IMG/VR virus record: IMGVR_UViG_3300028189_000014 | Span: 1 to 62,200 of that record | Origin: a virus | Direction: 5' to 3' (one strand) | DNA: 62,200 bases | Shown: piece after piece, positions 19,472 through 53,130 of the stretch | How the letters are laid out: every line of letters starts with the position of its first letter | How positions within the stretch are numbered: the stretch's first letter is position 1 | The notes under the pieces: generated by a model | Seen by the model: the letters and a program-made list of their open reading frames with translations, nothing else | Database searches by the model: none | What the model was told of the DNA's origin: nothing | Made by a program: the position numbers and the translations under genes

Positions 19472-19504
19472 TATAAGCATAGCTTATTTTATTGGGGAAA
19501 TCAA
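19472..19504 (-). promoter_or_regulatory. Sigma70-like promoter with 17-bp near-palindrome
   Basis: On the minus strand: TTGATT (19499-19504), 17-base spacer, TATGCT (19476-19481). The 17-mer at 19472-19488 covers the -10 and much of the spacer. It is placed to drive the tail-fibre genes from 19426 leftward, immediately after the giant gene's stop at 19501. Same layout as before the small terminase and capsid genes. Confidence 0.6.
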
Positions 19505-22500
19505 TCATTCAGATGCCTCATCGCAGGGATCTGGCTCCAGATAGGGATAGATCTATTAACACCGTTACCACTAAAGATAGAATCTACATGCCCGGCTGTT
19601 GGACCTAATAATCGAGTTGAAGTTTTCCCATTCCATCCTTGTGCATCCATAGCTGAGAACCCTATTTCTAGAGCGCCAAAACCTCCCGATCTACGGAATA
19701 TATTATAGGTGTAATCTCCCATGCCTTGTTTGGCTGTCGGATCGCGTTTACCCCAGTATTGGAGGAGTTCTCGAAGTTCTAGAGCTAAGCCTGCTAGTGG
19801 CAGCATGAAAAATGCGGCTAGAGCTATAGGCACAGACTTCGCAGGTAGGCCGTCTTGTTGTTTAACATTATTCCAGATACCTTCGAGCACCGTATGTTGG
19901 TATGCGTAGAAGAATGTTTTGAGGTGGGTTAGTAAACCAAATCTAGGATCGGACATGAACACCGGGCGCATTGCGTTATTCGGATTTACTACTGATTGAT
20001 CCACAAAAATCCCAATAGCATCTTGAACTCGCTGAGCCAATAACGCCGTATTCGGATCTTGTTCTAAATCCATGCTCATATCCTCTGCACGATTCCATAC
20101 CGGACGACCTAACTTATCCCATTGTTTTACTAAATCTGGGGTTAGTTTGAGCTCTTCTAAGAACTGGGTACTGTTCTCGTTCTGCTCAGTTATGCCATGT
20201 CTGATAATGAAATCCTCAGCAATAGACGCTGACATCACGCGGGACATATCAGTAAACCACTTCTGCCCGTTATATAAGAACAAATTCTTATTGGCTGTTT
20301 GTGCCCATGATGGCGCGGTATCTAACCCATATACTTCCAGCATTGCATGGTTCGCTAAGGTATCTTCTAAGAAGCCCATAGCCCGGTATCGCTGATAAGC
20401 CTCTTTGCGGTTCTTTACGGTACGTGCATACTGATGAAGAGCAGCTGATGCACCCTGAACATCTTTAGCGCGTAAGATAGGCCCTGCTAACTCAGGTATA
20501 GAGGCTACTGCGGTAAAGAGCAACACCATCCAGTTTTCCGCCGCCATAATATTATTCTGGTATTTACGCAACTGCGGATCCATATCTATACCCCGCTGTC
20601 CTAAGATTCCCTGCATCACGGTCTTAACACGGTTACGTGCTGTTGCATCAGGGATTGTGGCAATCTGATCGTTGAGTTTCTTAGCGGCATCGAAATAAGG
20701 CTCATCTCGCCCGTTGTCGACAATCTCGCCAAACAACCTACCGAACTCTGCGTGTCTGATCGACTTACGAACTGAGTTCATAAGTACAAACTCAGGGTCA
20801 GGATGTAGCCATCCGCCTTCGAGAAGATCCGCATTAGGGATCTGCATTAACTTGCCTCGTTTACGAACGGTGTTACCCGAAGGTGCATGTACTACATTTG
20901 GATCTAATGAAGTCTGATCTCGTAATATAGCATTTCGAAAATAGTCAGCATGAGTCTCATTCTCTACGAAATCATACTGCATCAAGAATTCATTAAACGC
21001 TTGTCCTTCCTGCTCTATCTTAGGGTTATTATACATTCGAGGGAAATGGTTAGTTACGCTCTCGAAGAACGGTACGGTGGACCCTAGATATTCAGTGAAT
21101 TTACGATGGACTTTGCGTAGTTCGACAGTCTTAGGATGCACTTCTGCGTCGGTTAACTGCTCATTTTGAACTTCACTCAGTATCTGGTCTTTCAGCCCCG
21201 GCGGTATAGATTTGAGCACTGTCTCATACGCTCCACCCCACTGCCGATCAAGCTGAGCAACTGCGACTAACCAGGGGCGTTGAATAGCACTAGTTGTTTG
21301 TGGACGTAGCCATAGCTTATCAGCAATAGCGTCAGCTCCCCATAACCGAAGCTGTTGATCCGCCGATAACAATGGGTACAGAACTTTCCTAGAACCTGAG
21401 AGAATCGCATTGATTCGAACCCGTGCTTGGTCGCGTAATTGCGGAGTTACTGCATTCAATAACGTTTCACGTAGTCGTTCAGTAAACGAGTCCAGCTCTT
21501 CTTCTGTAGGATTCGTTGTAGATGTGTCCTCTTCAGTTATAGATACAGAGTCTCGTTCATAGGCTGAGGGCTGTTCAAAGCCATAGCCGGGCGAATAACG
21601 TTTAGAGGTAACACCCTGCATATATTCAGAGAATGTTTGGTTCTGCTCAAACCGTCTCGACTTATTCTTATGCATCCGCTCATAAGCCGCTTTTAATCCT
21701 GCTTTGATCTCAGTGAATAATTGCTTCACTTTTTTAGCTAAGGATTGCTTCGTATCTGTAGATTCTGCAAGGAGACTATGTAATCCTTGCATACTGTCAA
21801 GATTACCTGAAGCTGCCCAAGCACTCATCTGGTCAGCGAACCATTCTCGGTAAGCATAAGGCTTATCCCAAGAACCCATCTCTGTTTCATAGGCTTTATA
21901 TAGAGCATCTTGTACTTCTTTCGGGGCTTTATGGAGAGCGTTACGCATAAATGCATGCCCAAACTCATGCCCTAAAGTAATCATCTGTACGGGGGCATCC
22001 CACTTGTTGTTTATATAGATAACGGCATGGTCTTTAAAATACCAAGTAGTCCCCATCTTATTTTTTTGTGCTAACCGACTAGTCATATCAGCTAGAACAT
22101 CTTCATCGACCAACGGGTTACGCAGCTTCGCATTCTGTTTAAGGATGCGTCCTACCGCCTGCATCTCTTTGTATTCTGAGAGAGCTCTTAGTTGGCGCAG
22201 AAGCTCGACTTTTTTAGCTCTCGCATTAGTCCTGACTTTCTTATTTTTTGCGTTTTCACCCTGTATCTTATTAAGTTCTTTCTGAATATTAAGCCATGCC
22301 TCGCCTCTATCTGAACGAACCAACTCTAGTTGTTTGGGGTTTAATACAGTTGACAGATCGTCAGGGAGTGCCAGTTCACTCTGGTCGACTATGTCCTGTA
22401 AGCCGTCGTTGTCAATTAGCATGACGTTGAACTTCGAGTTCGTCGCTTTAAGTAGTTGTACTACCGTGGGGCCTAACAGTTTCGCTGTTTTACCTACCGC

Positions 22501-25500
22501 TTTAACGTGAGGACCTAACATTTTTCCGCCAGCACTCGAGAGCACCGATTGCCAAGAACTACCCTGACTTACTGTACTATTAGGATCTGCTTTGTGGCCT
22601 CGGTTCCTAAATCCTGAGAGAATAAGGTCGCGCCATTGACGTTCGAACTTATGGTCAGACTGCGACACTTCAGTATCGTTATCTACAGTATCTAATATAG
22701 ACTTGTCGCCCGTGACGTAATCTTCGACTCCTTTACCGAACGCCGCGTTTTCACGTTGGACATTGAGCCAGTTGGCTAACTTAGTGGCGTGTTGGTCGAG
22801 TTTTAGAGACTCATTTTCTAGACGAGTAGCTTCTTCGTTTAAAGCGATTTGTTCCTCTGCATCTTGTAGGTTCTCATCATTCGCCTCCTCCCGGAGAGCA
22901 GTCGATTCTTTACGTAATGCCATAGTATACTTATGCACCTCAGCTATATCGTTGGATGTTTTAACTTCTAATTCTGCGCGGTAGCCTCGTTCTAGTTTAT
23001 CGAGTAGATCTATTTGTTTTATGAGGTTATTACTTTCTTCTGGAGTCCTCATATGATTCGGCTTGGCTGATATCTCACCGATCTGCTCTTGAAGAGCTCG
23101 TATCTGCCGTACCTTCACATCGTTATTAGCAATGTTCAGTTCTTGCTGAGTTACCTTATCTAAGGTGAGCATCTGTGTCGCCATTGTTGCGAGATGCATA
23201 TGGGTTTCTTGTAATACAGGATTCCCATCGCTTACCCGTTCATTTTTACCTGTTTCGGGATGGAATACGTACTGCGGCGCGAATGACTGTGCCGCATCTA
23301 ACATATCATTGATATGTTTCTTCAACGCGTAAGACGGATGAGATTCATCAGGTAATTTCTGACGACCTACAACTGCGCGTGACGATATGACTACATCTTC
23401 GTCTGCTGTGCCGTACTGGGATTCAGCTTTTTGGTCAACCTCTCCGGGTCTATGAGGCCCTAAGTCTGCTAGTCGCTTCGCTGCTTCGCGCGTATACTCC
23501 GCACGGGTTACAAGATCCTGCCCATAACCTAAGTTATCCCAGCTACTCAAAGCCGCATCTTTGCGGGCTTGGTCTGTAGTATTTAAATCAACCTGTTCGG
23601 TTATTTCAGGATCAGTGTTTACGTCTTGAACTTCTGACAACTTCTCAAGCTGCTCCTCCAAGAACATCATTGTTATCTTATCGTCAGGATCGAGTGATTG
23701 GCCTTCTTCTATATCCCGATACATTTTAAAGTACAGCTTCTCCCGCTCAGCTGTATATCGCTGACTCAACTCTATAGCTGCATCACCACGCTCATCTTTG
23801 TTAACCTCTTTATCTCTGAGTTTAGCGTGTAGCGCTGTCTCTGTTTCGTTCCTGAGTTCACTAGCTTGGAGATAAACGGTCTTCTTGAAAAAAGCCTCAC
23901 GCGCAGACGCTACCGTTGTTGATCGACGTTTTGACTCTGTTGATACTCCGGTCTCCTCATTTACATGGCTGACCATCGAATCGACAGTTCGATCCCCTGC
24001 TTTAGTCTTATAATTCCATATCCGACGATTATCCCAATTACTAAGATCTCGCCCTAGTAGATCTTCGTGTTCAATGCCTTTATCGCCATACTTTTCTGGA
24101 TTGCGACGAATTATTATTTCTAAAGATCGGATCAACGCTTCATATACATCAGCGGCTGACGGTTGGAGAATGGGCATTTTCTGCCCCCGCTCTTGCGCTA
24201 ACTTGAGCATCCCTAATCTAACTAACTCGATAGTGTCGTAGTTCTTGCCGTCTACAGTGACTATCTCAGCATCGCGGTCCTCTAAGCTATTCGCTTTTTT
24301 GTTGCCGCTGACTTGAGCTTTACGTAATAATGCTACTTCGCCAAACCGAACACCTTGGAAATTATTAGAATCCGTAGGGTACACAGAGAGGTAATGACTC
24401 TTCGGTATCGGATCGCCTTTGTAATCTTTTTCATCAGAGTATTCAGCGACTTCGATCCCTATAGTATGGTCAGGAAATTCTGCCTGTAGAGCCATCAGTT
24501 TCCGCTCTAGAGATTCAGACGGTTGTCCGATTTTCTCTCCTTTACTATGAGCTGCATAGGGCTTGCCTCTATCTTCATGGATCTCGTTCTGCCCTATGAT
24601 GAGTACTTCGGGAATACTCATCTCAAAACCACCACTCTCGAACACGTCAAATGCTCGCCACGTAGTACCCATTACTTTAGAAGTAGAATTGTTTAAGGCT
24701 TTATTAACCGCAACTGCGATTAAATCTCCTGCGATAGCATCGAATTTATCTTTGAGGGCTATATTATTTCCCTCCTCATCGAAACCAAAAGAAGGCATGT
24801 CCTCTGCCTTACTTTGTTTTTTCACGAAGGCTTCTTTCTCTTCCTTCGTTTTCAGAGAACTGTATTCAACAGCAGCTTCGCGTAATTTTTGTACTTTCGA
24901 GTACGCCTCAGTAGCCTTAGCTGACATTTCATCTAATGCAGCTTTGCGCCCCTCGGGAGTTGATGCTTTACCTAAAGCCTCAGCACCTTTCTCAAGAGAA
25001 TCTTTTAGCGCGTCATTAAATTCATTAAACGATTTAGGACTATCTGAATAGGCTTCTTTTACTTTGTCGACAAAGCTCTTAATCGTGTCGCCGTAAGCTG
25101 TGTGATCTGTGTTCGCATCATCCCTATGGGTGTTAAGCTGTTCGGTAAAGTTACCTATCTCGTTTGATGCATCTACAACTTTTTGATGAGATTCACCTAT
25201 TTTCTTAGCTGCCCAGTCAACACCTTGTCCTACTTTATGAGCACCGTATTGCGTAGCGGCAACGGGCGCAGATCCACCAAACGCCATGCCACCGCCAGCA
25301 GCGAAACCTTTGGAGAAGTCTTCTATAAGGCGTTGCCCGTTCTCGGGTGAGAATATGTCGTATTCGGGTTTATTAGCTTTAATCGCTAAGAAACTAATTA
25401 TAGATTGGATGTCTTCAGTGAATCCTTCTACCCCTGCAGTTATACCTACGCCTTTCGCCACCGTAGCGATAGTTTCCATGACGGTTTTAGGGTTCTTGCG

Positions 25501-26496
25501 CGCAACTTTAAAAACTTGTTTTAGTGCAGCTGCGACACCAACTACATCTACGGCAGCACCGGGGACTCCTGCAAGTAATGCCGCCGCCCCTGCTTTGTCA
25601 GGAGCAACGCCTTCTCTGATCTGATCTTTATAATACTCACCGACCATTAACGGATAGCTAGCTGTAGCCGCACCTACTAACGCTCCTTTCTTCTTCGCTT
25701 CGATTCGTAGTCCTCTAGCGAGCGCTTTCTTTGCTCCCGAACTTAACTTATCTACTAATTTCTTAGGATCTGTTTTGGGGTCAAAATTCTTAGCTGCTTG
25801 TTTTCGTGCAGCTTTTGCGTTGATGCCTAGACCCGTTTTAGATGGGTGGACATCCCAATCGAATATCCTCCGTATTTCATCGTGATATTTCTTAGGTACT
25901 TTATCTATTACTTTACTAACGGTTTTATAGGACGCTTCTAGATACTTAGGTCCTCTAAGCGTAGCACCTATAATACCTCCTGCGACCATAGGAACCATTT
26001 GAGCGAAATTCTCAGTTATCGCTTCAAGTATGTATGTGCCCGCCTTTGCAGGATCCCAGTCAACATCATATATAGATTCAATTTCAGCCGGATAATAACT
26101 AGCTTTATCTGCGTATTCTTCGCTGGTCTCCCGCCCAAAATCTGCTGCGGATTCAAATCCTGTAACCTCTGCAGCAGCTTCAATAGCTGAGCCTACATTA
26201 GAAACCGCGTTGTTAACCCCTCTGAGTATACCTCTCTGTGCGGCAGACTGATGCTGAAGATTCCCTTGACGTATTCGATTGTTATGCTGCTCGTCCCTTA
26301 TCGCTTTATCGTAGCGTAGGATATCCTCATCATTTAAAGCGTCTATGTCGAACTTCGGCGTATCTGCTGCGGTCTTTGCTACTGCTTGAGCATCTTTTTT
26401 TTCCTGTTCAGATACAGGAATATTCGATGCTTGTATCTTCGCCGATAAAGCTAAAATCTCGTCGTCAGATAGCGCATTTATGTCGAATCTGCTCAT
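19501..26496 (-). CDS. Giant internal virion (ejection) protein with metallopeptidase motif
   Basis: 2331 aa, the largest gene. N-terminus has two copies of an F-D-I-x-A-L-x-D-(D/E)-(E/D)-I-L motif (residues 3-14 and ~49-60). A glycine/alanine-rich hydrophobic region follows (~150-420), then long charged coiled-coil stretches. Near residue 1510 is GHEFGHAFM with a downstream YREWFADQ, fitting a zincin (HExxH plus distal Glu). The C-terminal ~500 residues are helical. The combination suits a large ejected core protein that can cross and cut the cell wall or process partners. It is not an N4-type virion RNA polymerase: I see none of its motifs. Confidence 0.75.
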   Translation of the reverse strand: MSRFDINALSDDEILALSAKIQASNIPVSEQEKKDAQAVAKTAADTPKFDIDALNDEDILRYDKAIRDEQHNNRIRQGNLQHQSAAQRGILRGVNNAVSNVGSAIEAAAEVTGFESAADFGRETSEEYADKASYYPAEIESIYDVDWDPAKAGTYILEAITENFAQMVPMVAGGIIGATLRGPKYLEASYKTVSKVIDKVPKKYHDEIRRIFDWDVHPSKTGLGINAKAARKQAAKNFDPKTDPKKLVDKLSSGAKKALARGLRIEAKKKGALVGAATASYPLMVGEYYKDQIREGVAPDKAGAAALLAGVPGAAVDVVGVAAALKQVFKVARKNPKTVMETIATVAKGVGITAGVEGFTEDIQSIISFLAIKANKPEYDIFSPENGQRLIEDFSKGFAAGGGMAFGGSAPVAATQYGAHKVGQGVDWAAKKIGESHQKVVDASNEIGNFTEQLNTHRDDANTDHTAYGDTIKSFVDKVKEAYSDSPKSFNEFNDALKDSLEKGAEALGKASTPEGRKAALDEMSAKATEAYSKVQKLREAAVEYSSLKTKEEKEAFVKKQSKAEDMPSFGFDEEGNNIALKDKFDAIAGDLIAVAVNKALNNSTSKVMGTTWRAFDVFESGGFEMSIPEVLIIGQNEIHEDRGKPYAAHSKGEKIGQPSESLERKLMALQAEFPDHTIGIEVAEYSDEKDYKGDPIPKSHYLSVYPTDSNNFQGVRFGEVALLRKAQVSGNKKANSLEDRDAEIVTVDGKNYDTIELVRLGMLKLAQERGQKMPILQPSAADVYEALIRSLEIIIRRNPEKYGDKGIEHEDLLGRDLSNWDNRRIWNYKTKAGDRTVDSMVSHVNEETGVSTESKRRSTTVASAREAFFKKTVYLQASELRNETETALHAKLRDKEVNKDERGDAAIELSQRYTAEREKLYFKMYRDIEEGQSLDPDDKITMMFLEEQLEKLSEVQDVNTDPEITEQVDLNTTDQARKDAALSSWDNLGYGQDLVTRAEYTREAAKRLADLGPHRPGEVDQKAESQYGTADEDVVISSRAVVGRQKLPDESHPSYALKKHINDMLDAAQSFAPQYVFHPETGKNERVSDGNPVLQETHMHLATMATQMLTLDKVTQQELNIANNDVKVRQIRALQEQIGEISAKPNHMRTPEESNNLIKQIDLLDKLERGYRAELEVKTSNDIAEVHKYTMALRKESTALREEANDENLQDAEEQIALNEEATRLENESLKLDQHATKLANWLNVQRENAAFGKGVEDYVTGDKSILDTVDNDTEVSQSDHKFERQWRDLILSGFRNRGHKADPNSTVSQGSSWQSVLSSAGGKMLGPHVKAVGKTAKLLGPTVVQLLKATNSKFNVMLIDNDGLQDIVDQSELALPDDLSTVLNPKQLELVRSDRGEAWLNIQKELNKIQGENAKNKKVRTNARAKKVELLRQLRALSEYKEMQAVGRILKQNAKLRNPLVDEDVLADMTSRLAQKNKMGTTWYFKDHAVIYINNKWDAPVQMITLGHEFGHAFMRNALHKAPKEVQDALYKAYETEMGSWDKPYAYREWFADQMSAWAASGNLDSMQGLHSLLAESTDTKQSLAKKVKQLFTEIKAGLKAAYERMHKNKSRRFEQNQTFSEYMQGVTSKRYSPGYGFEQPSAYERDSVSITEEDTSTTNPTEEELDSFTERLRETLLNAVTPQLRDQARVRINAILSGSRKVLYPLLSADQQLRLWGADAIADKLWLRPQTTSAIQRPWLVAVAQLDRQWGGAYETVLKSIPPGLKDQILSEVQNEQLTDAEVHPKTVELRKVHRKFTEYLGSTVPFFESVTNHFPRMYNNPKIEQEGQAFNEFLMQYDFVENETHADYFRNAILRDQTSLDPNVVHAPSGNTVRKRGKLMQIPNADLLEGGWLHPDPEFVLMNSVRKSIRHAEFGRLFGEIVDNGRDEPYFDAAKKLNDQIATIPDATARNRVKTVMQGILGQRGIDMDPQLRKYQNNIMAAENWMVLLFTAVASIPELAGPILRAKDVQGASAALHQYARTVKNRKEAYQRYRAMGFLEDTLANHAMLEVYGLDTAPSWAQTANKNLFLYNGQKWFTDMSRVMSASIAEDFIIRHGITEQNENSTQFLEELKLTPDLVKQWDKLGRPVWNRAEDMSMDLEQDPNTALLAQRVQDAIGIFVDQSVVNPNNAMRPVFMSDPRFGLLTHLKTFFYAYQHTVLEGIWNNVKQQDGLPAKSVPIALAAFFMLPLAGLALELRELLQYWGKRDPTAKQGMGDYTYNIFRRSGGFGALEIGFSAMDAQGWNGKTSTRLLGPTAGHVDSIFSGNGVNRSIPIWSQIPAMRHLND

Positions 26497-36592: not shown

Positions 36593-38332
36593 CTACGCTG
36601 TCATCGCGTTCTTCTTACCTTTTCCGAACGCTGCTAATTTGTCACGCCAGCTTGGTGGTGGTTTTTCCACTGGAGCTCTGTAAATACTAAACTCTGCCAT
36701 CATCAGACCGATCCATGCCATGGCATCAACCTGATCGTCGTGCACCCCGTTAGGAAAACGGAGCATCTCGTTAATTAGTGGTACCGTAAACTCAGCGTTC
36801 TTAGGAAATAGCACCATACCCTGCTGCATCCGACCCTGAATCGCACGGGCACGTACCATCTTGTCGCGCTTACCCGGGCGTAGGTCTTTGAAGTACGCCG
36901 AAAATAAGTTACGTTCGCGCATACGCTTCTCGAGGAACGGCCCTATCGCCATCTCAATGTGTCCTTTCTCCACCCCGATGATGTCGGGCTGCCAGGCTTC
37001 GTACATATCGAGCATCTTCTCAACGATGTCGTGCCCGTTCCACCGCCCTCGCTCAACATGCAATAAGTACAGCTTGTCCTCAGGGCTCACCCCCATCACG
37101 ACACCTACCGAGTAATCGTTCGCCTCACGCTGACCAATCGCCAAGTCCCACGCCGCGTAAATTTTCATCTCTTCGCGCGGAGGCTCTTCGTCGTAGTACC
37201 GTATCATCGAACGTGTGAAGTACTCGCCCTCGTCTGCGACGGGATTCTGCTGGTACAACGCCGACCAATCGCGCGGGCCTACCGCTGCGCGGATGCGCCT
37301 GAGGGACTCCAGGTCATACCGAGCCTCATGCAGCGGTGTGCCTTTCTTACGATGCGGCTCATCTATCTCCGCTATCGCCGGATATTTGATCACCTCCCAC
37401 TGGTCGCCAGATTTCTGCTGCTCGAGCAGCCATCCGGCTAAATCGTCATCGTGCCACCGCGTTAGTATCACCAGCACCCCTCCGCCGGGGGCTAACCGTG
37501 TGTACGCCGTGGATGTGTACCAGTCCTTAACCGACTGCCGACCCGTCTCCGACTCAGCATCCTCTCTGTTCTTAACCGGATCGTCGATCACCAATACGTG
37601 GGCACCCTTACCCGTGATCGCACCGCCGACACCCGCCGCGACGTACCCGCCGCCCTTATCAGTGAGCCATGCCTCAGCTGACTGACTGTCCTTATCTAAC
37701 CGCGTCTCTTTGAAAACCGTTTGGTACGGCTTTTCCCGCAGCACCTGCCTGACTTTCCTACTGAAGCTCATCGCTAGCGACCCTGAGTACGAGCATGCGA
37801 TGAACTCGTGCGTTGGGTTACGCCCGATGTGCCACGCTGGAAAATATGTCGATGCCAGTAGGCTCTTACCATGGCGTGGCGGCATGAACAGCATCAAGCG
37901 TGGGGATTCTTTGTTCGCCACCGCATCTGAGAACTTTTCAAGCCGCTCGCATATATCCTTATGCACCCAGCCCGCCTGATATTCTGGGAAAAATCGTGTG
38001 ACGAAAGGTAGCAATCGTCGTTTGCTCAGCTCGCGCCGTGCTAGCTCCTGTTTCGCCAATTCCTTAGCATCAGGACGTTTTTCTTCTAATCTTTTAACTT
38101 CTTTTTTTACCGCCGCAGTTTTCGCTTTGCCACGCAGGGCATCGCGCGCTTGCTGATGCTGCTGACGACGCTCTTTCTGGACTGCTGCGACTGCTTTAGG
38201 ATTCTTAGCCCGGCTTACGCGATGCGTCTCTTTAATGTCAGCATTCTGGACGCAATTCATGCATAAGTCGCCTTTGAACAGCGTCTCTTTATGCTCTTCT
38301 TTGCACTTTTTACATTTTTTAAGAGGAATCAT
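36593..38332 (-). CDS. terL: Terminase large subunit (ATPase and nuclease)
   Basis: 579 aa. A short zinc ribbon opens the protein (Cys7, Cys10, Cys24, Cys27) and a Lys/Glu-rich linker follows. Walker A PPRHGKS at 151-157, Walker B LVIDDP near 240, then the RNase H-like nuclease: AAWDLAIGQREANDYSVG, IGVEKGH and a final HDDQVDAMAW. It powers headful or cos packaging with the small subunit, whose gene overlaps its start by four bases. The N-terminal zinc ribbon is not part of the usual terminase core. Confidence 0.92.
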   Translation of the reverse strand: MIPLKKCKKCKEEHKETLFKGDLCMNCVQNADIKETHRVSRAKNPKAVAAVQKERRQQHQQARDALRGKAKTAAVKKEVKRLEEKRPDAKELAKQELARRELSKRRLLPFVTRFFPEYQAGWVHKDICERLEKFSDAVANKESPRLMLFMPPRHGKSLLASTYFPAWHIGRNPTHEFIACSYSGSLAMSFSRKVRQVLREKPYQTVFKETRLDKDSQSAEAWLTDKGGGYVAAGVGGAITGKGAHVLVIDDPVKNREDAESETGRQSVKDWYTSTAYTRLAPGGGVLVILTRWHDDDLAGWLLEQQKSGDQWEVIKYPAIAEIDEPHRKKGTPLHEARYDLESLRRIRAAVGPRDWSALYQQNPVADEGEYFTRSMIRYYDEEPPREEMKIYAAWDLAIGQREANDYSVGVVMGVSPEDKLYLLHVERGRWNGHDIVEKMLDMYEAWQPDIIGVEKGHIEMAIGPFLEKRMRERNLFSAYFKDLRPGKRDKMVRARAIQGRMQQGMVLFPKNAEFTVPLINEMLRFPNGVHDDQVDAMAWIGLMMAEFSIYRAPVEKPPPSWRDKLAAFGKGKKNAMTA

Positions 38333-40437: not shown

Positions 40438-40575
40438 ATGTTCACCATCAAATCAATACAGCTAGGTTATATATTTGCCTACAGAATCTGGGATGTAAAG
40501 GCTAACCGCCCTGTATCCCCATTGTTCGCTGAGCTTGCACAAGCTGAGCGTGAATTGGCTATCTTAGAATTATAA
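40438..40575 (+). CDS. 45-aa protein
   Basis: ATG 40438 with AAAGGAG upstream. Product MFTIKSIQLGYIFAYRIWDV with a helical C-terminus (LFAELAQAERELAILEL). Overlaps the 17-bp element at 40571 by a few bases and is followed by a terminator. Function unknown. Confidence 0.6.
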   Translation: MFTIKSIQLGYIFAYRIWDVKANRPVSPLFAELAQAERELAILEL

Positions 40576-40587
40576 GCATAGCTAATA
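40571..40587 (+). promoter_or_regulatory. Dispersed 17-mer before terminator and gene 40647
   Basis: TATAAGCATAGCTAATA. It overlaps the stop of the 45-aa gene and lies upstream of a terminator hairpin and the gene at 40647. The -35 position (TATCTT, 17-base spacing) is poor. Confidence 0.45.
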
Positions 40588-40592
40588 ACCAT

Positions 40593-40622
40593 GCCTGCAC
40601 ACTCCGGTGTGTGGGCTTTTTT
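40593..40622 (+). terminator. Rho-independent terminator
   Basis: Stem GCCTGCACAC / GTGTGTGGGC around loop TCCG (10 pairs including two G-T) followed by six T. Ends the first early transcript block. Confidence 0.85.
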
Positions 40623-41093: not shown

Positions 41094-41294
41094 ATGCAAA
41101 TAATCAACTTATTGATAACTATCTGGAAATCGCTTCCATGGTATACCAAAGCCCTAACTATGTTCTTCTGGGCAACCCTCATCATAGCCATCTATACAGG
41201 GCATATCACCCTCTGGCTAACCTACTATTTCTACTACCTAATCATCACATTCTGCATTGGTCTGTATATAGGCTATAAGGAGGCACACTCATGA
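41094..41294 (+). CDS. 66-aa membrane protein, two predicted spans
   Basis: ATG 41094 after CAGGAGTATAGAAC. Very hydrophobic and aromatic (ALTMFFWATLIIAIYTGHIT, LTYYFYYLIITFCIGLYIGY). Its end overlaps the Nudix start by four bases (ATGA). With the genes at 39028 and 40838, it makes three small membrane proteins in the early arm. Confidence 0.65.
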   Translation: MQIINLLITIWKSLPWYTKALTMFFWATLIIAIYTGHITLWLTYYFYYLIITFCIGLYIGYKEAHS

Positions 41295-41749
41295 GCACTA
41301 AAAAGAACGCATCAATGGTCGGGATCATATCAGCCCACAAAATACTACTATGCAGCACTAAGAAAAATCCAGAGTTCTGGCAGCCCGTAGGTGGTGGGCA
41401 GCAAGGTCATGAAGACCCACGTAATACTGCTATGCGAGAACTATGGGAAGAAACGGGCGTTGTCCTAGGCGACACACAGCTACTAAAAGAACGTTGTGTG
41501 CACCCCTCTAAAACAGGGGGGAAAGTTACTTTCTACACAGTAGAATACTCCGTCGCTTCTAGGTACTCAGAATATGAACACTTAGAAGATTTTCTCGAAG
41601 AACAGGACGAAATAGCAGATTTTAAATGGGTTACACCCGCTGACGCACTAGCAAGGCTACCCATGATGTCTGCCACTAAGCTGTTTCTCTGGCAACTACG
41701 TTACGAAATTTTATGTGACCAAATAGCTCAGCTCGCTACGCGAGACTGA
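41291..41749 (+). CDS. Nudix hydrolase
   Basis: 152 aa with a full Nudix box (G35-x5-E41-x7-R49-E50-L-x-E53-E54-x-G56), so it should hydrolyse a nucleoside diphosphate-linked substrate with Mg2+. Preceded by a beta strand region WQPVGGG. The exact substrate cannot be told from sequence; phage Nudix enzymes act on (d)NTPs, ADP-ribose-type compounds or capped RNA. Ends in AQLATRD from the 31-bp repeat. Confidence 0.9.
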   Translation: MSTKKNASMVGIISAHKILLCSTKKNPEFWQPVGGGQQGHEDPRNTAMRELWEETGVVLGDTQLLKERCVHPSKTGGKVTFYTVEYSVASRYSEYEHLEDFLEEQDEIADFKWVTPADALARLPMMSATKLFLWQLRYEILCDQIAQLATRD

Positions 41750-41798: not shown

Positions 41799-43469
41799 AT
41801 GGAAGCTCAGATATTAGAGTATCTAAATAAGCAATACAGCTATGAGAGCAAAGCGCTCCGTATAGCTAAGTTGAAAGAGCGTCAGCTAACACCGCTAGCC
41901 ATCTCGGCTAAGCTATGGACGGCACTCTGCCGCACCCAGCAGGACAAAACTGCAATACAGAACGTAGCCACACGCCTAGGTACTAGCCTCGGCTATACGG
42001 ATCAGCTCGACGCAGTTAAAACTGGCGCTGAGCTGTTGGCAATCTGTCAACATCAAGGATGGTACACGCTTGATATGACCCGTTATGGCACCTATGTGCT
42101 ACCTAACTTACCTAAAGAAGCGTTGATAAAATCCAACTTCCCCACCTTCAAGCCCAACAAATGGAGTAGTAACCATAATGGTGAAGACTCTATTATATTA
42201 GGTGGCGGGATGAAACATCACAATCAAGCACAGTCGTATGACGTGCTTAATATCCTACAGAATATAGAATGGTGTATAGATACCGAGGTTCTACGTTATG
42301 AGAAGAACCCGAAAGCTAAGCACCACTCCCAGAGAACCCGTGCTGACTTCAATGCTATATATAACGACTTAATAGGTCGTGGCTTCTACTTCAAATGGCG
42401 TTACGACATGCGCGGGCGTGGATTCATCCACAGTTATTTCTTAAACTTCCAAAGTCATGAATATGACAAGGCTCTGTTATCACCTCGTAAAAAGGTAATT
42501 ACCGAGAACCTCGGTAACCTTAAGATAGCCGTAGCTAACGAAGCAGGGCACGATAAGCTCCTGTTCGAAGAGCGTATAGCCTGGTTCGATGCACAGCTTG
42601 AGAAAGGCTTCAATACCGAAGAATTCAAATACCCCATACTAGGACGCAAAGCATTACGAGCCTACGCCCTAGCAGAACAGGGACTGCCTAGTAATTACAT
42701 GATGGGGCTAGATGCTACTGCCTCGGGCTTACAGATCATGGCGGCATTAATTGGCTGTAAGATCACAGCGAAAGCCTGCAACTTGATCTATTCAGGCACA
42801 CGAGAGGATCTGTACACACTCGTAGCTGATACGATGAATGCTGAGCTATCACCAGCTGACTATGTAGACCGTAACATGGTGAAAGATCCTGTAATGACTC
42901 ACTATTACAATAGTATCAAAGAACCACGTAAAGCGTTCAACGATGCACAGCTACAGGCGTTCTACAACGCATTGGATGGGCTCTGCCCCGGTGCCGTAGA
43001 CGTTATGGATACGATCAACGCCTTCTGGAATAAGCGGACACTTGAGCACAGTTGGACTCTCCCTGACGGGCACCGCTCAGTTGTCCCTGTCATCGAAACA
43101 GTAGACAAACGTGTTGAGGTAGATGAGCTGAATCACCGTCGCTTCGCTTATATCTACAAAAAGAATATGCCATCACGTAAGTCAACGTCCTTAGTGCCTA
43201 ACATTATTCACTCGGTCGATGCCTACGTTGCCCGTGAGATGGTAAGGCGCTGTCCGTTCGACATTGTGCATATTTTCGATTGCTTCTACTTCTACCCAGA
43301 TAATATGGACGAAGCCTCACGTATATACCGTGAGATCCTAGCAGATATCGCACAGAGCAATCTGTTAGCTGACATCTTATCGGAAATTAGCGGTAAGAAT
43401 ATAAGCATTGCTAAAGATAGTGACGATTTACACATCGACATCCTTACTAGCAAATATGCGATTTCTTAG
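41799..43469 (+). CDS. Compact T7-type single-subunit RNA polymerase
   Basis: 556 aa from ATG 41799 (a TTG at 41784 coincides with its ribosome site). Core motifs of the family are present: Y202-D-M-R-G-R207 (T7 MDWRGR), motif A D305-ATASGLQ, motif B R358-x3-K362-x7-Y370 with exactly the T7 spacing (R627, K631, Y639), H471-S (T7 H784) and motif C D494 in HIFDCFYF. The His before the motif C Asp (T7 H811) is Phe here. T7 polymerase is 883 aa, so most of the N-terminal promoter and RNA-binding domain is reduced. It should transcribe phage genes from its own promoters; promoter recognition must differ from T7. Confidence 0.9.
   Translation: MEAQILEYLNKQYSYESKALRIAKLKERQLTPLAISAKLWTALCRTQQDKTAIQNVATRLGTSLGYTDQLDAVKTGAELLAICQHQGWYTLDMTRYGTYVLPNLPKEALIKSNFPTFKPNKWSSNHNGEDSIILGGGMKHHNQAQSYDVLNILQNIEWCIDTEVLRYEKNPKAKHHSQRTRADFNAIYNDLIGRGFYFKWRYDMRGRGFIHSYFLNFQSHEYDKALLSPRKKVITENLGNLKIAVANEAGHDKLLFEERIAWFDAQLEKGFNTEEFKYPILGRKALRAYALAEQGLPSNYMMGLDATASGLQIMAALIGCKITAKACNLIYSGTREDLYTLVADTMNAELSPADYVDRNMVKDPVMTHYYNSIKEPRKAFNDAQLQAFYNALDGLCPGAVDVMDTINAFWNKRTLEHSWTLPDGHRSVVPVIETVDKRVEVDELNHRRFAYIYKKNMPSRKSTSLVPNIIHSVDAYVAREMVRRCPFDIVHIFDCFYFYPDNMDEASRIYREILADIAQSNLLADILSEISGKNISIAKDSDDLHIDILTSKYAIS
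43400..43416 (+). promoter_or_regulatory. Dispersed 17-mer inside the RNA polymerase gene end
   Basis: TATAAGCATTGCTAAAG, 120 bases before the next gene. A weaker match in its right half; possible operator only. Confidence 0.35.
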
Positions 43470-43534: not shown

Positions 43535-43954
43535 ATGGCTAACAAAGCAACTACTACCTATGACGACGAAACCTATTTTTTCTTACAACTAGGCAACCAA
43601 CGTGTACGTTTTGTACCTGTTGAAGCCTTTGCGGGGACTATCACCGAAGCTGGTGTGTATAACTTCCTTAGCACTAAAGCCATCGTTGGTGTAACAGCCC
43701 CACGTACCAGCGGTAAGAATGCAGGTAAACTTGGCTTTACTGTTAACGGCACCCAAGGCAAACGCACTAGCGTTATTGGGTTCATTAACTTCTATGAAAG
43801 CACAGCTTGTGCTACCTCTACAGATACCGAGCTTGGCGCTGAGAAAGGCAAGCTAGAAATGCTGTTGAAGAAAATGAAACGTACTGACGTAACTACACCT
43901 TACACTGATGAGCAAAATGAGTCATTCGCAGATGACTTAGGCTTAGCAGCGTAA
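43535..43954 (+). CDS. Unknown 139-aa protein between RNA polymerase and terminator
   Basis: ATG 43535 with TGGAGAAATACC upstream. Predicted beta-rich first half (YFFLQLGNQRVRFVPVEAF), a Gly/Thr-rich middle (GVTAPRTSGKNAGKLGFTV) and a helical acidic C-terminus (KGKLEMLLKKMKRTDV, then DDLGLAA). It has the compactness and strong terminator of a highly expressed gene. Could be a small DNA- or RNA-binding partner of the polymerase; I do not recognise it. Confidence 0.65.
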   Translation: MANKATTTYDDETYFFLQLGNQRVRFVPVEAFAGTITEAGVYNFLSTKAIVGVTAPRTSGKNAGKLGFTVNGTQGKRTSVIGFINFYESTACATSTDTELGAEKGKLEMLLKKMKRTDVTTPYTDEQNESFADDLGLAA

Positions 43955-43966
43955 CTTTTACCTCTT

Positions 43967-43990
43967 GGGGAGCTTCGGCTCCCTTTTTTT
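43967..43990 (+). terminator. Strong rho-independent terminator
   Basis: GGGAGC-TTCG-GCTCCC (43968-43983), a UUCG-type tetraloop hairpin, followed by seven T. Closes the RNA polymerase transcript. Confidence 0.92.
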
Positions 43991-46444: not shown

Positions 46445-46895
46445 CCAACAGGAGTACCTACGCAACAGGGTCTACGAAGAGCTACTCCGTATAAATGCTG
46501 GTAGACACCTAGTGTCATACCAATTATTCCCTAAAGCAGGAATCATTGAGCTAGATTGCAGAGGAGATCATGTTTTTAGAGTAAATGACTTAGGGTACAT
46601 GACCTACACCTTAGGGCTGCCTATCAACCAGAAAGCAGAACGTATCTTGAGGATAAAAAACAGCATGCTTGCAAATTACCAACGCAATCAGGAAGGGAAA
46701 TGGTTGTGGAGCTATGAAGACACACACCATGATATTTTAAACGTACTAAAGGAAGGAGTAACCACCAATGAAACCCAGCGAACTGACCGAGCTCTTAAAA
46801 GCCTCGCTTATAAACGTGACCTTGAAACCCGGCGAATCCCGTCTATCAGCAATGGTATGGGGCGCGCCTGGCATCGGGAAATCACAGATCATTAA
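46437..46895 (+). CDS. 152-aa protein overlapping the ATPase gene
   Basis: Starts MDSQQEYLRNRVYEELLRIN, followed by a beta-rich part (GIIELDCRGDHVFRVNDLGY). No domain known. It runs 128 bases into the MoxR gene in a different frame; its last ~42 residues are Arg/Thr-rich and may be a by-product of the overlap. Possibly a cofactor of the ATPase module. Confidence 0.6.
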   Translation: MDSQQEYLRNRVYEELLRINAGRHLVSYQLFPKAGIIELDCRGDHVFRVNDLGYMTYTLGLPINQKAERILRIKNSMLANYQRNQEGKWLWSYEDTHHDILNVLKEGVTTNETQRTDRALKSLAYKRDLETRRIPSISNGMGRAWHREITDH

Positions 46896-47799
46896 ACAGC
46901 TAGCAGAAGAACACGACTATCGCTTTTTAGATATACGCCTATCTCAGATGGGTCCCGAAGACATGCAGGGGGTACCTTTTGTAGTCGTCGAAGATTCTGA
47001 AAAACGAACTGCTTGGGGTACACCACTTATGTACCCTAAAGAAGGTGACAAAAAAACCCTGATGTTCTTCGATGAAATCACCCATGCTCCACCTGCAGTA
47101 CGCAAATCTGCCTTTCAGATCATCCTAGACCGACAAATAGGACAACATAAATTCCCTGAAGACACAGTTATTGTCGCAGCAGGAAACCGCGTTGAAGATC
47201 GCTCCGGTGCACAAGAAATGGAGTTGGCTCTAAAGAACCGCTTTATGCACTGCGACTTAGAGGTAGATCGTGATGATCTAGCAAGTTGGTGGGTGAGGAA
47301 CGATAAAGACTCTAGAATCTTATCATTTCTACGTGCCGCACCGCATCATATACATGATATGCCTGAAGGTGTCACAAGTGAGAACGCTTTCCCGTCGCCA
47401 CGTACATGGGATTTCGCTTCGCAAATTCTCAGGACTGTCCCTAAACACCTACGCCTACAAGCTTTGAAAGGAACTGTCGGAACAGGTCCTGCTAAAGAAC
47501 TCGAAGTACACTTACGTACAGAACTCCCCGATATGGAGAAACTATTGGCAGAACCGTGGAGTTTCAAACCGCCGGAAGACCGTTCAGTTATGTACGCTAT
47601 AGCCAACGCGCTTACAACTTACGTAACTCGAGCTACGATACAAGGTTTCTGTGATATTGCAGAGCAATTAGCTTCGATCAACCACCAACAGGATTTTGCT
47701 GTTACTATGACGCGTGACTTGTTCATTAACAAACCTGAACTAACTCAAACCTCAAGCTATATTGCTTGGGCAGCTAAACATAAACATTTGGTGATTTAA
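46768..47799 (+). CDS. MoxR-family AAA+ ATPase
   Basis: 343 aa. Walker A GAPGIGKS (32-39), Walker B LMFFDE (98-103), sensor-1 region VIVAAGNRVED, and a C-terminal helical lid. Ribosome site AAGGAAGGAG fixes the start at 46768. MoxR ATPases work as chaperone-like motors with VWA-domain partners; a VWA-peptidase-like protein is encoded 1.2 kb downstream, and a 282-aa protein between them is the likely third part. Substrate unknown; could remodel replication or host complexes. Confidence 0.88.
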   Translation: MKPSELTELLKASLINVTLKPGESRLSAMVWGAPGIGKSQIIKQLAEEHDYRFLDIRLSQMGPEDMQGVPFVVVEDSEKRTAWGTPLMYPKEGDKKTLMFFDEITHAPPAVRKSAFQIILDRQIGQHKFPEDTVIVAAGNRVEDRSGAQEMELALKNRFMHCDLEVDRDDLASWWVRNDKDSRILSFLRAAPHHIHDMPEGVTSENAFPSPRTWDFASQILRTVPKHLRLQALKGTVGTGPAKELEVHLRTELPDMEKLLAEPWSFKPPEDRSVMYAIANALTTYVTRATIQGFCDIAEQLASINHQQDFAVTMTRDLFINKPELTQTSSYIAWAAKHKHLVI

Positions 47800-48961: not shown

Positions 48962-50128
48962 ATGGCTGCCCCACGTAGAATTAAAAAAGCAAAAAACGTT
49001 AAGCAATACGACCGTATGGCTAAAGCCCGAACACGTCTTATCCTCGACGAACCTTTTTTTGCCACCTTACTCCTTAAACTCCATTTAATAGAAGACACAT
49101 CCATCCCTACTGCCGCAACTGATGGCAGAGTAATTCTATATAGTCCTGAATATACAGAGACGATAACCGACGCAGAATGCGTAGGGCTATTAGCTCACGA
49201 ACTCATGCATTGTGTGTTCTACCATATGACGCGTCGAGGTCATAGGACTCCCTATAGATATAATTTAGCCGGAGACTACGTAATAAATCCCGGAATTACA
49301 GCATCAGGTATGACTTTGCCCCCCGGGGCCTTGGACGACCCTCAGTATTACAACATGACCACAGAACAAGTATACGACTTACTCCCCGAGGACGAGGAAG
49401 GCAATAACCCGATTGGCCCTGATGGATTTCCTCAAGATTTCCCACCAACTGACTGGGTGTTCGATGACAGCAAAGCCGCTATGTCCCCAGCTGAGAAAAG
49501 CCGCGTTGAAGAAGAATGGGAGCTTAATGTACAAGAGGCCGTACGAAATGCAGAAGCTGCAGGAAAAATGCCTGCAGGACTCGAATCTATTATTGAAAGT
49601 TTTGGTAAGCCCCAAGTTAATTGGCGCGCTGCACTACGACGATTCTTCACCGTGTATTCAAAACGCGACTATTCATGGAGCAAAGTAAAACGCCGTTTAA
49701 TCTCACAAAATATTTACCTTCCAAGTCTACACTCAGAAGATTTAGACAATCTCGTTATCGGCGTTGATACCTCTGGTTCTGTCTCCGATGAAGAACTTGC
49801 CTTATTCAGCGATGAAATCAACAGCATACTCGTGAATTTTACAGCTACTGTCACTGTAATCTATTGTGATTCCGTAATACAAGAAGTTGAAACTTTTGAA
49901 ACTGATGAATTACCCAGAGCTTTAAGTGATGAATTCCCCGGACGAGGAGGTACTAGACTTACACCTATTCTTGAATATATAGAGACCATGAATTTAGATC
50001 CTAGTTGCATGGTGTATCTAACCGATGGAGGGATATGGGACAACCCACCTGCCCCATCATACCCTGTGTTGATCGTAACTACAGACGAAGAAATTTCAAT
50101 TGGCGAAAACATAAAAATGGAGCGGTGA
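48962..50128 (+). CDS. VWA-like protein with metallopeptidase-type N-domain (DUF2201-like)
   Basis: 388 aa. H79-E-L-M-H83 in a zincin-type helix, with a following YNLAGDYVINPGI segment, and a C-terminal VWA-like fold with a MIDAS motif D-T-S-G-S near residue 270 and TDGG near the end. This fusion is known as DUF2201 and is usually next to a MoxR ATPase, as here. It probably recognises or processes a protein target under ATPase control. Confidence 0.85.
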   Translation: MAAPRRIKKAKNVKQYDRMAKARTRLILDEPFFATLLLKLHLIEDTSIPTAATDGRVILYSPEYTETITDAECVGLLAHELMHCVFYHMTRRGHRTPYRYNLAGDYVINPGITASGMTLPPGALDDPQYYNMTTEQVYDLLPEDEEGNNPIGPDGFPQDFPPTDWVFDDSKAAMSPAEKSRVEEEWELNVQEAVRNAEAAGKMPAGLESIIESFGKPQVNWRAALRRFFTVYSKRDYSWSKVKRRLISQNIYLPSLHSEDLDNLVIGVDTSGSVSDEELALFSDEINSILVNFTATVTVIYCDSVIQEVETFETDELPRALSDEFPGRGGTRLTPILEYIETMNLDPSCMVYLTDGGIWDNPPAPSYPVLIVTTDEEISIGENIKMER

Positions 50129-51179: not shown

Positions 51180-51265
51180 CCTTAGTTGGAGCTTTGTTAC
51201 TACTCCCCCTATTCCTTTGCATTGGAGGTTTTTTAATCCTTAAATATCTAATAACAAAAAAATGA
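51137..51265 (+). CDS. 42-aa single-span membrane peptide
   Basis: ATG 51137 with ACAGGAGAGAAAGT upstream; runs out of frame through the previous gene's end and its stop overlaps the DNA polymerase start (ATGA). One hydrophobic span (LVGALLLLPLFLCIGGFLIL) with basic ends. Unknown role. Confidence 0.5.
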   Translation: MYFLRRNYSNKNEVTLVGALLLLPLFLCIGGFLILKYLITKK

Positions 51266-53130
51266 AACTCATCCTAGATTTTGAAACCTTCTATAGCGTC
51301 CCTTATTCGCTGACTAAAATGACAACTATGGAGTATGTACGAGATGACCTATTCAAGATACACGGTGTAGGCATACAACTAGAAGATTGGTTAGCCCCAG
51401 AGTATATCTACGAGGAAGATGTCGAAGAAACCCTACGCGATATTTGGGAATCTCATGAAACAATAGAACTCGTCTGCCATAACACGCGTTTTGATGCTTA
51501 TATCTTAGCCAGACGTTTTGGGTTATATGCCGATTTCTACTACGACACCATGAGCATGTCAGCAGGACTATTCCCGGGGCAGAAAAGTAACTTAGCTAGT
51601 CTATGTGGACGCTTATGGCCCTCTGATCCAACTATGCAAAAGGGTGAAGAATTAAAACAAACTAAAGGAATTGAAGATTTATCGCCTGAGCTCAGTAAAA
51701 CCCTTGGAGACTATTGCATTCAGGACGTACGTATCACACAAACGGCATTTGATCTGATGGTTGAAAACTATCCCCAAAGAGAACTAACCTTAATCGACCT
51801 GCATATACGAATGTTCGTAAACCCTAAGTTTATACTAGACCGTAAAACAGTCGAAGAATTTTTAGCCGAAGAACAACGCATCCAAACAGATTTAGTAGCA
51901 GCCTCAGGATATACAGCTAAACAGTTAGGATCTAATCCACAGTTCGCCGAAATCCTAGAGTCTCTAGAAATCCCAATCCCTAAAAAAATATCACCTACAA
52001 CAAACAAAGAAACTTTCGCCTTTGCTAAAAACGATATTAATTTCCAAGAACTTCAAACCTCAAACCCACAATTTAAACATATATGGGACGCTCGTTTAGC
52101 AGTTAAGAGCACAATAAATCGTACTCGAGCAAAACGGATGCTAAACGCTGCAGACCCCTATACTAATGAGTTAGCAGTAGCGCTTAAATACTATGGTGCA
52201 CACACCGGACGAGCTTCTGGAGCTGAAAAACTTAACTTCCAGAACTTACGTAGAGGCTCTATCCTAAGACGCGCACTACACGCACCAGAAGGCCACAGTG
52301 TAGTAGTTGTTGACTCCGCACAAATCGAAGCGCGAGTCTTAGCGTGGGTATCAAACCAACTAGAATTATTGCAATTATTCGCTGACGATATAGACGTATA
52401 TTGCGCTTTCGCCAACCACATCTACCCCGACAAGGTACCCGTGACTAAAGAACAAAACCCTCTGGAACGCTTTGTAGGTAAAGTTGCTATTTTAGGCTTA
52501 GGATACGGTATGGGATGGCGTAAATTCCAAAAAACATTAGAAGCCGGTGCCTTAGGTGCTGACCCACTACTAATCACTGATAGCGAAGCTGAAAAAATCG
52601 TACAGACATACCGAAGAGCAAATTACATGATCCAAGGCTATTGGGGTACTGCAAGTAAGATGCTGTTTGCTATGATGCAGAAAGGCAAACCCCCTATACC
52701 GTGGGGGCCTTTAATGGTCACACACGAACAAATACTACTCCCTAATGGTATGGCTTTGAAATACCCAGGGCTTAGAATTGTAGATGGAGAGAACGGACGC
52801 GAGCTCGTTTACAACCTCACGCTACCTTCATCTGCTACAGATAAAGAGATGATCGAAAGTAAATCTACTGTACGTACATATGGAGCAAAAATGGTCGAAA
52901 ATATAGTACAGGCGCTAGCCAGAATTATCGTTATGGATCAAATGCTCGAAATAAATGAAAAATATCCCGTTGCATTAACTGTACATGATGAGGTGGTCTG
53001 TATTGTACCTAATGAGACAGCTTCGGACGCATTTGAGTTCATGCTCAAAGTTATGAAGACCCCACCCGACTGGGCTCCTAACCTACCGCTGGATGCGGAG
53101 GGCGGGGTCGACTATTGTTATTCGAAATAA
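51262..53130 (+). CDS. Family A DNA polymerase with 3'-5' exonuclease
   Basis: 622 aa. DEDD exonuclease residues: D6-x-E8, D78 (HNTRFD) and D155 (YCIQD). Polymerase: motif A D351-SAQIEARVL, motif B R403-x3-K407-x7-Y415, motif C H575-D576-E577. No 5' nuclease domain. It should replicate the phage genome with the primase-helicase gene that follows. Confidence 0.95.
   Translation: MKLILDFETFYSVPYSLTKMTTMEYVRDDLFKIHGVGIQLEDWLAPEYIYEEDVEETLRDIWESHETIELVCHNTRFDAYILARRFGLYADFYYDTMSMSAGLFPGQKSNLASLCGRLWPSDPTMQKGEELKQTKGIEDLSPELSKTLGDYCIQDVRITQTAFDLMVENYPQRELTLIDLHIRMFVNPKFILDRKTVEEFLAEEQRIQTDLVAASGYTAKQLGSNPQFAEILESLEIPIPKKISPTTNKETFAFAKNDINFQELQTSNPQFKHIWDARLAVKSTINRTRAKRMLNAADPYTNELAVALKYYGAHTGRASGAEKLNFQNLRRGSILRRALHAPEGHSVVVVDSAQIEARVLAWVSNQLELLQLFADDIDVYCAFANHIYPDKVPVTKEQNPLERFVGKVAILGLGYGMGWRKFQKTLEAGALGADPLLITDSEAEKIVQTYRRANYMIQGYWGTASKMLFAMMQKGKPPIPWGPLMVTHEQILLPNGMALKYPGLRIVDGENGRELVYNLTLPSSATDKEMIESKSTVRTYGAKMVENIVQALARIIVMDQMLEINEKYPVALTVHDEVVCIVPNETASDAFEFMLKVMKTPPDWAPNLPLDAEGGVDYCYSK

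What the first reader, a model, noticed from the sequence alone, without database searches (positions are those of the whole stretch)
41799..43469. Unusually short T7-type RNA polymerase
All core motifs are kept with T7-like spacing in motif B, but the protein is 556 aa against 883 in T7 and the conserved His before the motif C Asp is Phe. Promoter recognition and RNA-exit parts must be reduced or different. A temperate phage with an integrase and its own polymerase is also uncommon.
Basis: partly seen in the sequence, partly recalled or inferred. Interest (0 to 1): 0.75.

Follow-up and report, generated by a model that had tools for sequence, protein, structure and literature searches.

The report
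One-chain N4-type phage RNA polymerase
A temperate bacterial virus carries a small, intact RNA-copying enzyme of a kind known until now mostly as two separate proteins in lytic N4-like phages; here it is a single protein in an otherwise unrelated phage, which gives a simple test case for how this minimal enzyme works and how the two-part version arose.

Summary
The ORF at 41799-43469 is real, intact and under strong purifying selection (dN/dS 0.04-0.07). It is not a cut-down T7 enzyme. Its closest kin is phage N4 RNA polymerase II, normally two subunits (gp15 + gp16). Here both parts form one 556-aa chain, without the 70-91 aa insert that N4-type enzymes carry before motif C. Motif C is F-D instead of H-D and the glycine after the motif B tyrosine is Asn; both occur in some relatives. 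AlphaFold gives a T7-type fold (pLDDT 85) with shortened N-terminal and thumb regions. A few other IMG/VR contigs have the same one-chain form. The phage is a probably complete, integrase- and CI-bearing relative of KPP25 and phiA008; more distant members of that lineage lack the polymerase, so it was probably acquired. Unlike N4, no virion RNA polymerase and no gp2 homologue were detected. I read it as a functional phage polymerase expressed early from the rightward operon. How it finds promoters is unknown. A dispersed 17-bp element (about 15 sites) is probably a repressor operator, but could be its promoter. Verdict: new variant of a known kind.

The parts
41799..43469 (+). Single-chain N4-RNAPII-type RNA polymerase, 556 aa (equivalent of N4 gp15 + gp16)
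42405..42419 (+). DxxGR motif (D203-R207; T7 D421-R425)
42492..42521 (+). Seamless junction (residues 232-241) at the place where N4 gp15 ends and gp16 begins
42696..42746 (+). Motif A, catalytic D305 (T7 D537)
42882..42911 (+). Motif B, K362...Y370, with N371 in place of T7 G640
43209..43211 (+). H471 (T7 H784); 22 residues before F493, i.e. no N4-type insert
43275..43280 (+). Motif C F493-D494 (T7 H811-D812)
41291..41749 (+). Nudix hydrolase upstream of the polymerase in the same operon
43535..43954 (+). 139-aa protein directly downstream, conserved in the window clade and weakly in G019; no homology to N4 gp2 detected; possible cofactor by position only
43967..43984 (+). Terminator-like hairpin followed by T-run after the polymerase and the 139-aa gene
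40593..40616 (+). Terminator-like hairpin just before the polymerase operon
46768..47799 (+). MoxR-type AAA ATPase, homologue of N4 gp24 (phrog_1297)
48962..50128 (+). DUF2201/VWA putative metallopeptidase, homologue of N4 gp25 (phrog_1314)
51262..53130 (+). Family A DNA polymerase, KPP25/phiA008 type (backbone)
36593..38332 (-). Terminase large subunit, KPP25/phiA008 type (backbone)
19501..26496 (-). 2331-aa virion protein, homologous to phiA008 and KPP25 large virion proteins; no RNA polymerase domain detected
1398..2384 (+). Tyrosine integrase
2..604 (+). CI-like repressor (HTH_3 + peptidase S24), 5' end lies across the circular junction
40571..40587 (+). 17-bp dispersed element (TATWAGC-N3-GCTWATA) immediately before the polymerase operon; one of about 15

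Best explanation
The gene encodes a catalytically competent DNA-dependent RNA polymerase of the N4 RNAPII type in one chain. Shown by sequence: it unites the gp15-like part (short N-terminal region, short thumb, DxxGR) and the gp16-like part (palm and fingers, motifs A-C), keeps the catalytic residues, and lacks the insert of Schitoviridae enzymes. Shown: it sits near the start of the rightward replication arm of a KPP25-like temperate phage without a detectable virion RNA polymerase. Inferred: host RNA polymerase transcribes this operon once the CI-like repressor is lifted; the phage polymerase then transcribes other phage genes, most likely the replication arm, as N4 RNAPII does for N4 middle genes. 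Inferred: because the T7-type N-terminal promoter-binding part is mostly missing while the region aligned with the T7 specificity loop is present, it depends on a helper protein and/or pre-opened AT-rich DNA to start. Inferred: an ancestor of the window clade gained it from an N4-related phage.
For: Homology: N4 RNAP2 (6dt7_B) phmmer E=4e-40 over residues 241-556, T7 E=2.5e-8, N4 RNAP1 weak at 0.0059; phrog_2166 hit over residues 3-362 at 9e-38; profile of the family against 6dt7_B E=6e-128. Architecture: one ORF spans the N4 split site; spacing from H471 to motif C is 22 residues, as in T7-like enzymes, while split N4-type enzymes have 70-91 extra residues there except L023, L092, L099 and L100. 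Fold: AlphaFold2 pLDDT 85, pTM 0.81; Foldseek to T7 RNAP E=5e-22, to N4 RNAP2 E=2.6e-20 with rmsd 3.0. Selection: dN/dS 0.04-0.07. Backbone: terminase, portal, capsid, DNA polymerase and helicases match phiA008/KPP25; neither has such a polymerase in the parts held, nor do the 52-61%-terminase relatives G029, G034, G042. Lysogeny genes: integrase, HTH+S24 repressor.
Against: No activity, transcript or promoter has been shown. N371 and F493 change two residues that are conserved in T7, so catalysis could be altered, though both changes occur in relatives. The thumb region and residues 107-142 of the model have low confidence, and the alignment behind that part is thin. No homologue of the N4 cofactor gp2 was found, so the analogy with N4 RNAPII is incomplete on the initiation step. 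The direction of transfer is inferred from presence and absence in few, partly incomplete contigs.
Confidence: 0.75

Rival explanations
1. It is a T7-type (Autographiviridae) polymerase that lost its N-terminal domain by truncation or a frame error.
For: Shorter than T7 by 327 aa; best Foldseek hits by E-value include T7 RNAP.
Against: Sequence is far closer to N4 RNAP2 than to T7 (4e-40 against 2.5e-8); the first 235 residues match N4 gp15-type subunits in 169 phage records, all 60 sampled being N4-type phages; intact in four contigs with purifying selection; the tree puts it in the N4 RNAPII clade with 100/100 support.
Confidence: 0.03
2. The single chain is the ancestral, never-split state of the N4 RNAPII lineage; N4-like phages later split the gene and gained the insert.
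For: The insert is absent in T7-like enzymes too; AU tests do not reject all split rows forming one side of a branch (p=0.59) nor all insert rows (p=0.72); further gene breaks are seen in JWAlpha (endonuclease between two RNAP2 pieces) and an HNH gene lies between the subunits of EE36phi1, so splitting seems easy.
Against: In the best free tree the one-chain enzymes are nested among split, insert-free ones (L023 sister 98/99; L092, L099, L100 outside), which favours a re-fusion by parsimony.
Confidence: 0.4
3. The single chain is a secondary re-fusion of split subunits in one sub-lineage.
For: Tree topology (one-chain clade 94/86 inside an insert-free clade 100/99 whose other members are split); in L100 the two genes abut at 6777/6779, a small change away from fusion.
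Against: The long branch to T7-like enzymes leaves the root open and AU tests do not reject the alternative; no linker scar at the junction.
Confidence: 0.45
4. The enzyme is a degenerate or inactive relic, or is used for primer synthesis in replication rather than transcription.
For: F493 and N371 substitutions; the gene lies in the replication arm.
Against: dN/dS 0.04-0.07; catalytic Asp, Lys, Tyr and DxxGR kept; the phage has its own helicase-primase type protein (53191-55668).
Confidence: 0.08

Closest known systems
Phage N4 RNA polymerase II (gp15 + gp16; PDB 6dt7), Schitoviridae
   Same: Homologous over both subunits; truncated N-terminal and thumb regions; same motif order; also has gp24 and gp25 homologues downstream
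   Different: One chain instead of two; lacks the 70-91 aa insert between the T7 H784 equivalent and motif C; F-D instead of H-D; Asn after the motif B Tyr; no virion polymerase or gp2 homologue found in the phage
One-chain relatives in IMG/VR: L003/L004/L005, L019-L021, L022, L085, G019
   Same: Single chain of about 540-606 aa without insert
   Different: L019-L021 and L085 contigs also carry a virion RNA polymerase of 2711-3422 aa; the window clade does not
T7 RNA polymerase
   Same: Fold and catalytic residues, motif B spacing, no insert before motif C
   Different: T7 has about 170 more residues before the N321 landmark and about 48 more between it and DxxGR
Kochitakasuvirus KPP25 and Aeromonas phage phiA008
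   Same: Two-arm gene order and homologous terminase, portal, capsid, DNA polymerase, helicases, large virion protein
   Different: No single-subunit RNA polymerase in the parts searched; no MoxR/VWA pair matched

Membership tests
T7-type single-subunit RNA polymerases (PF00940) | DxxGR, motif A Asp, motif B Lys/Tyr, motif C Asp and the polymerase fold | tested here: met
T7-type single-subunit RNA polymerases (PF00940) | RNA polymerase activity | not testable with these tools
   needs purified protein
N4 RNA polymerase II | Sequence descent from the gp15/gp16 lineage | tested here: met
   (clade support 100/100 against T7-like)
N4 RNA polymerase II | Two separate subunits | tested here: not met
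   one ORF
N4 RNA polymerase II | Insert of 70-91 aa before motif C | tested here: not met
N4 RNA polymerase II | gp2 single-stranded DNA-binding cofactor (phrog_4099) | tested here: inconclusive
   none in the window, but the family model also missed LIT1, so it is not sensitive; no hit
N4 RNA polymerase II | Transcribes middle genes, active on single-stranded or opened DNA | not testable with these tools
   known for N4 from PMC4496689
Schitoviridae (phage) | Virion-encapsidated RNA polymerase of about 3,500 aa (phrog_2206) | tested here: not met
   no match in the window; no BLAST or profile match of the 2331-aa protein
Schitoviridae (phage) | Other N4 genes | tested here: not met
   of the 15 N4 proteins tested (gp1, gp2, RNAP subunits, replication and virion proteins) only gp15, gp16, gp24 and gp25 have homologues in the window
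KPP25-like phages | Shared terminase, portal, capsid, DNA polymerase and helicases in the same two-arm order | tested here: met
Temperate phages | Integrase and CI-type repressor | tested here: met
   integration itself not shown

The most novel reading that the evidence does not exclude
The 556-aa protein is a self-sufficient minimal RNA polymerase that starts transcription on its own at the dispersed 17-bp TATWAGC-N3-GCTWATA elements, so that a phage-specific promoter and the lysogeny operator are one and the same site, with no virion polymerase, gp1 or gp2.
Probability: 0.1. Interest if true: 0.8.

Novelty: new variant of a known kind. Interest (0 to 1): 0.52.

Why it matters
N4 RNAPII is one of the smallest T7-family polymerases, and why it is split in two and how it opens promoters with gp1, gp2 and an unknown factor are open questions (PMC4496689). 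A natural one-chain, insert-free version in a phage without a detected virion polymerase or gp2 suggests that neither the split nor the insert is needed, gives a single gene to express and test, and places an N4-type polymerase in a temperate phage of another lineage, where it must be kept silent in the prophage. Small single-gene polymerases are also of practical use for making RNA.

Tried and rejected
Frame error or truncated T7 gene: rejected. Virion RNA polymerase inside the 2331-aa protein: no support by BLAST, profile alignment or phrog_2206. N4 gp2 homologue next to the polymerase (139-aa gene and small neighbours in relatives): no support by HMMER or hhalign. A dedicated three-gene cassette RNAPII + gp24 + gp25: weakened, because G029, a KPP25-like relative, has the MoxR/VWA pair without the polymerase, and gp25-like proteins are common in jumbo phages. 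Sigma-70 promoters near the operon: fewer than in shuffled sequence. Rfam: nothing. Prophage with this enzyme in isolate genomes: no one-chain form found by two pattern scans, which are not exhaustive. Order of split and fusion: unresolved. N4-type hairpin promoters: the window elements have a 3-nt centre, but one stem position pairs in only 5 of 16 sites, so hairpin selection is not supported.

Full report
OBSERVATION. The ORF runs from ATG 41799 to the stop at 43469, 556 aa. It matches PF00940 (E 6.5e-21), phrog_2051 (4e-101) and phrog_2166, named N4-like RNA polymerase (9e-38, residues 3-362). One detail differs: the glycine after the motif B tyrosine (T7 G640) is Asn. The window is a 62,200-base virus record whose two ends overlap by 130 bases with one mismatch, so it is most likely a complete, circularly permuted genome of about 62.07 kb.

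NOT A TRUNCATION. Three IMG/VR contigs carry the gene at 91-96% identity with an uninterrupted frame; two of them have a 12-aa in-frame insertion. dN/dS is 0.04 against L003 and 0.07 against L005. The protein is therefore maintained.

WHAT IT IS. The best solved relative is subunit RNAP2 of N4 RNA polymerase II (6dt7_B, 4e-40), then T7 RNAP (2.5e-8) and yeast mitochondrial RNAP (2e-7); RNAP1 of N4 (6dt7_A) is weak alone (0.0059) but supported by the phrog_2166 profile. A joint alignment shows that residues 1-235 correspond to gp15 and 236-556 to gp16, in one chain with no scar at the place where N4 splits. Of the 327 residues missing relative to T7, about 170 are lost before the T7 N321 landmark and about 48 between it and DxxGR, i.e. 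in the N-terminal domain and thumb (domain names from general knowledge of T7 RNAP). N4 RNAPII is also described as having truncated N-terminal and thumb parts (PMC4496689). The stretch aligned with the T7 specificity loop is kept in similar length. AlphaFold2 gives pLDDT 85 and pTM 0.81, weak at residues 107-142; Foldseek finds T7 RNAP (5e-22) and N4 RNAP2 (2.6e-20, rmsd 3.0). Other short enzymes of 499-648 aa are among the BFVD hits, so small size alone is not unique.

THE DISCRETE CHARACTERS. In about 110 enzymes the segment between the T7 H784 region and motif C falls into two classes: 3-10 residues (T7-like enzymes, the window clade, L019-L021, L022, L085, L023, L092, L099, L100) or 70-91 residues (all other N4-type enzymes). 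One-chain enzymes were seen in the window, L003-L005, L019-L021, L022, L085 and later G019; L023, L092, L099 and L100 are split but lack the insert. In the phage collection (50,697 records) all listed N4-type hits were split in two pieces, and 60 records sampled from 169 with a gp15-side match were all N4-type phages with, where annotated, a separate subunit. These searches are not exhaustive. Phe before the motif C Asp is found in the window clade, L023 and L100, His in L019, L022, L085 and G019. Asn after the motif B Tyr is shared by the one-chain enzymes, L023 and L100, and by a few others such as L050.

PHYLOGENY. Insert columns left out, the insert-free enzymes form a clade (100/99) and the one-chain ones a sub-clade (94/86) with split L023 as sister (98/99). 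Read with the T7-like root this suggests one split and a later re-fusion. But the AU test rejects neither a single split (p 0.59) nor a single insert gain (p 0.72), and both constrained trees were slightly better than the free one. I leave the order open. Gene breaks in this family recur: an endonuclease gene separates two RNAP2 pieces in JWAlpha, and an HNH gene lies between the subunits in EE36phi1.

THE PHAGE. The genome has a leftward structural arm (2606-38814) and a rightward arm from 38851 over the junction to the integrase at 2384. Terminase, portal, capsid, the 2331-aa virion protein, DNA polymerase, helicase-primase type protein, exonuclease and SNF2 helicase match Aeromonas phage phiA008 and/or Pseudomonas phage KPP25, in the same two-arm order. 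Of the 15 N4 proteins tested (gp1, gp2, the RNAP subunits, main replication and virion proteins), only gp15, gp16, gp24 and gp25 have homologues in the window. phiA008 and the 48 kb of KPP25 examined have no single-subunit polymerase. Among 33 IMG/VR records with a related terminase only G001-G003 and G019, all with terminase identity of 80% or more, carry it; longer records with 52-61% terminase identity (G029 57 kb, G034 59 kb, G042 52 kb) do not. Gain in the window clade is the simplest reading. The MoxR/VWA pair is also in G029 without the polymerase, so it is separable from it. The related contigs L019-L021, L085, L023, L092 and L099 carry virion RNA polymerase matches; the window has none by phrog_2206, BLAST or profile comparison. 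In G001 and G002 the corresponding large protein has a weak match (E 4-6e-9) to positions 309-570 of that family only.

MECHANISM. Shown: catalytic equipment, fold, place near the start of the rightward operon, terminator-like hairpins at 40593-40616 and 43967-43984. From published work on N4 (PMC4496689): N4 RNAPII transcribes middle genes, binds single-stranded DNA without sequence specificity, and needs gp2 and probably gp1. Inferred here: host polymerase makes the enzyme after derepression or infection, and the enzyme then reads other phage genes. The helper is unknown: the gp2 family was not found, but the model also misses LIT1, so absence is weak evidence. The 139-aa gene just downstream is a candidate by position only.

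A DISPERSED ELEMENT. A 17-bp quasi-palindrome TATWAGC-N3-GCTWATA occurs about 15 times; 27 matches with up to two mismatches against 7.65 +/- 2.9 expected. Most strong sites are in intergenic gaps, which cover only about 7% of the genome. It is present in G001 and G019 and not above chance in phiA008, KPP25, G034, G029, or the L021 and L085 genomes. It follows both the polymerase and the CI-like repressor, so presence does not tell which protein uses it. The dyad form favours a dimeric repressor; 11 of 14 orientable sites point with transcription (my count), which stoperators or promoters would also show. One site, 40572, lies right before the polymerase operon.

VERDICT. A real, functional-looking, one-chain variant of N4 RNA polymerase II in a temperate KPP25-like phage. 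The kind is known; the chain architecture, missing insert and genomic setting are new with respect to the annotated collections searched here.

Noticed in passing
window 467, 790, 1055, 8817, 19473, 31969, 35115, 38835, 40572, 43401, 45187, 47999, 48010, 53160, 53518, 58650: Dispersed 17-bp quasi-palindrome TATWAGC-N3-GCTWATA, far above chance, conserved in G001 and G019; probably operators of the CI-like repressor spread over both arms (stoperator-like), or less likely promoters of the phage polymerase.
   Followed up: partly
window 1-130 and 62071-62200: Imperfect terminal overlap of 130 bases (129 identical): the record is probably a complete circularly permuted genome; the CI-like repressor gene spans the junction.
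   Followed up: yes
window 46768-47799 and 48962-50128: MoxR ATPase and DUF2201/VWA pair (N4 gp24/gp25 homologues) also occurs in jumbo and rV5-like phages and in the KPP25-like contig G029 without the polymerase; PHROGs and many records call the second one an HNH endonuclease, but Pfam sees a putative metallopeptidase plus VWA-like domain.
   Followed up: partly
L008 2673-4692 and L010 2234-6309: Achromobacter phage JWAlpha RNAP2 is broken in two pieces around an endonuclease gene, and an HNH gene sits between the two subunits in roseophage EE36phi1: homing endonucleases may have driven the splitting of N4-type polymerases.
   Followed up: no
L238 8603-10291 (G019): A 49%-identical one-chain polymerase in a further integrase-bearing contig has Cys in place of the Asp of DxxGR (RFCTRGR) but His-Asp in motif C.
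   Followed up: no
L150 9623-11781 (Moraxella macacae chromosome contig): Split, insert-bearing N4-type polymerase inside an 866-kb bacterial contig, i.e. a possible N4-like prophage.
   Followed up: no
L003 and L004, polymerase at 10001-11707: The close relatives have a 12-aa in-frame insertion between motifs A and B that looks like a small duplication (ADTMN repeated).
   Followed up: no
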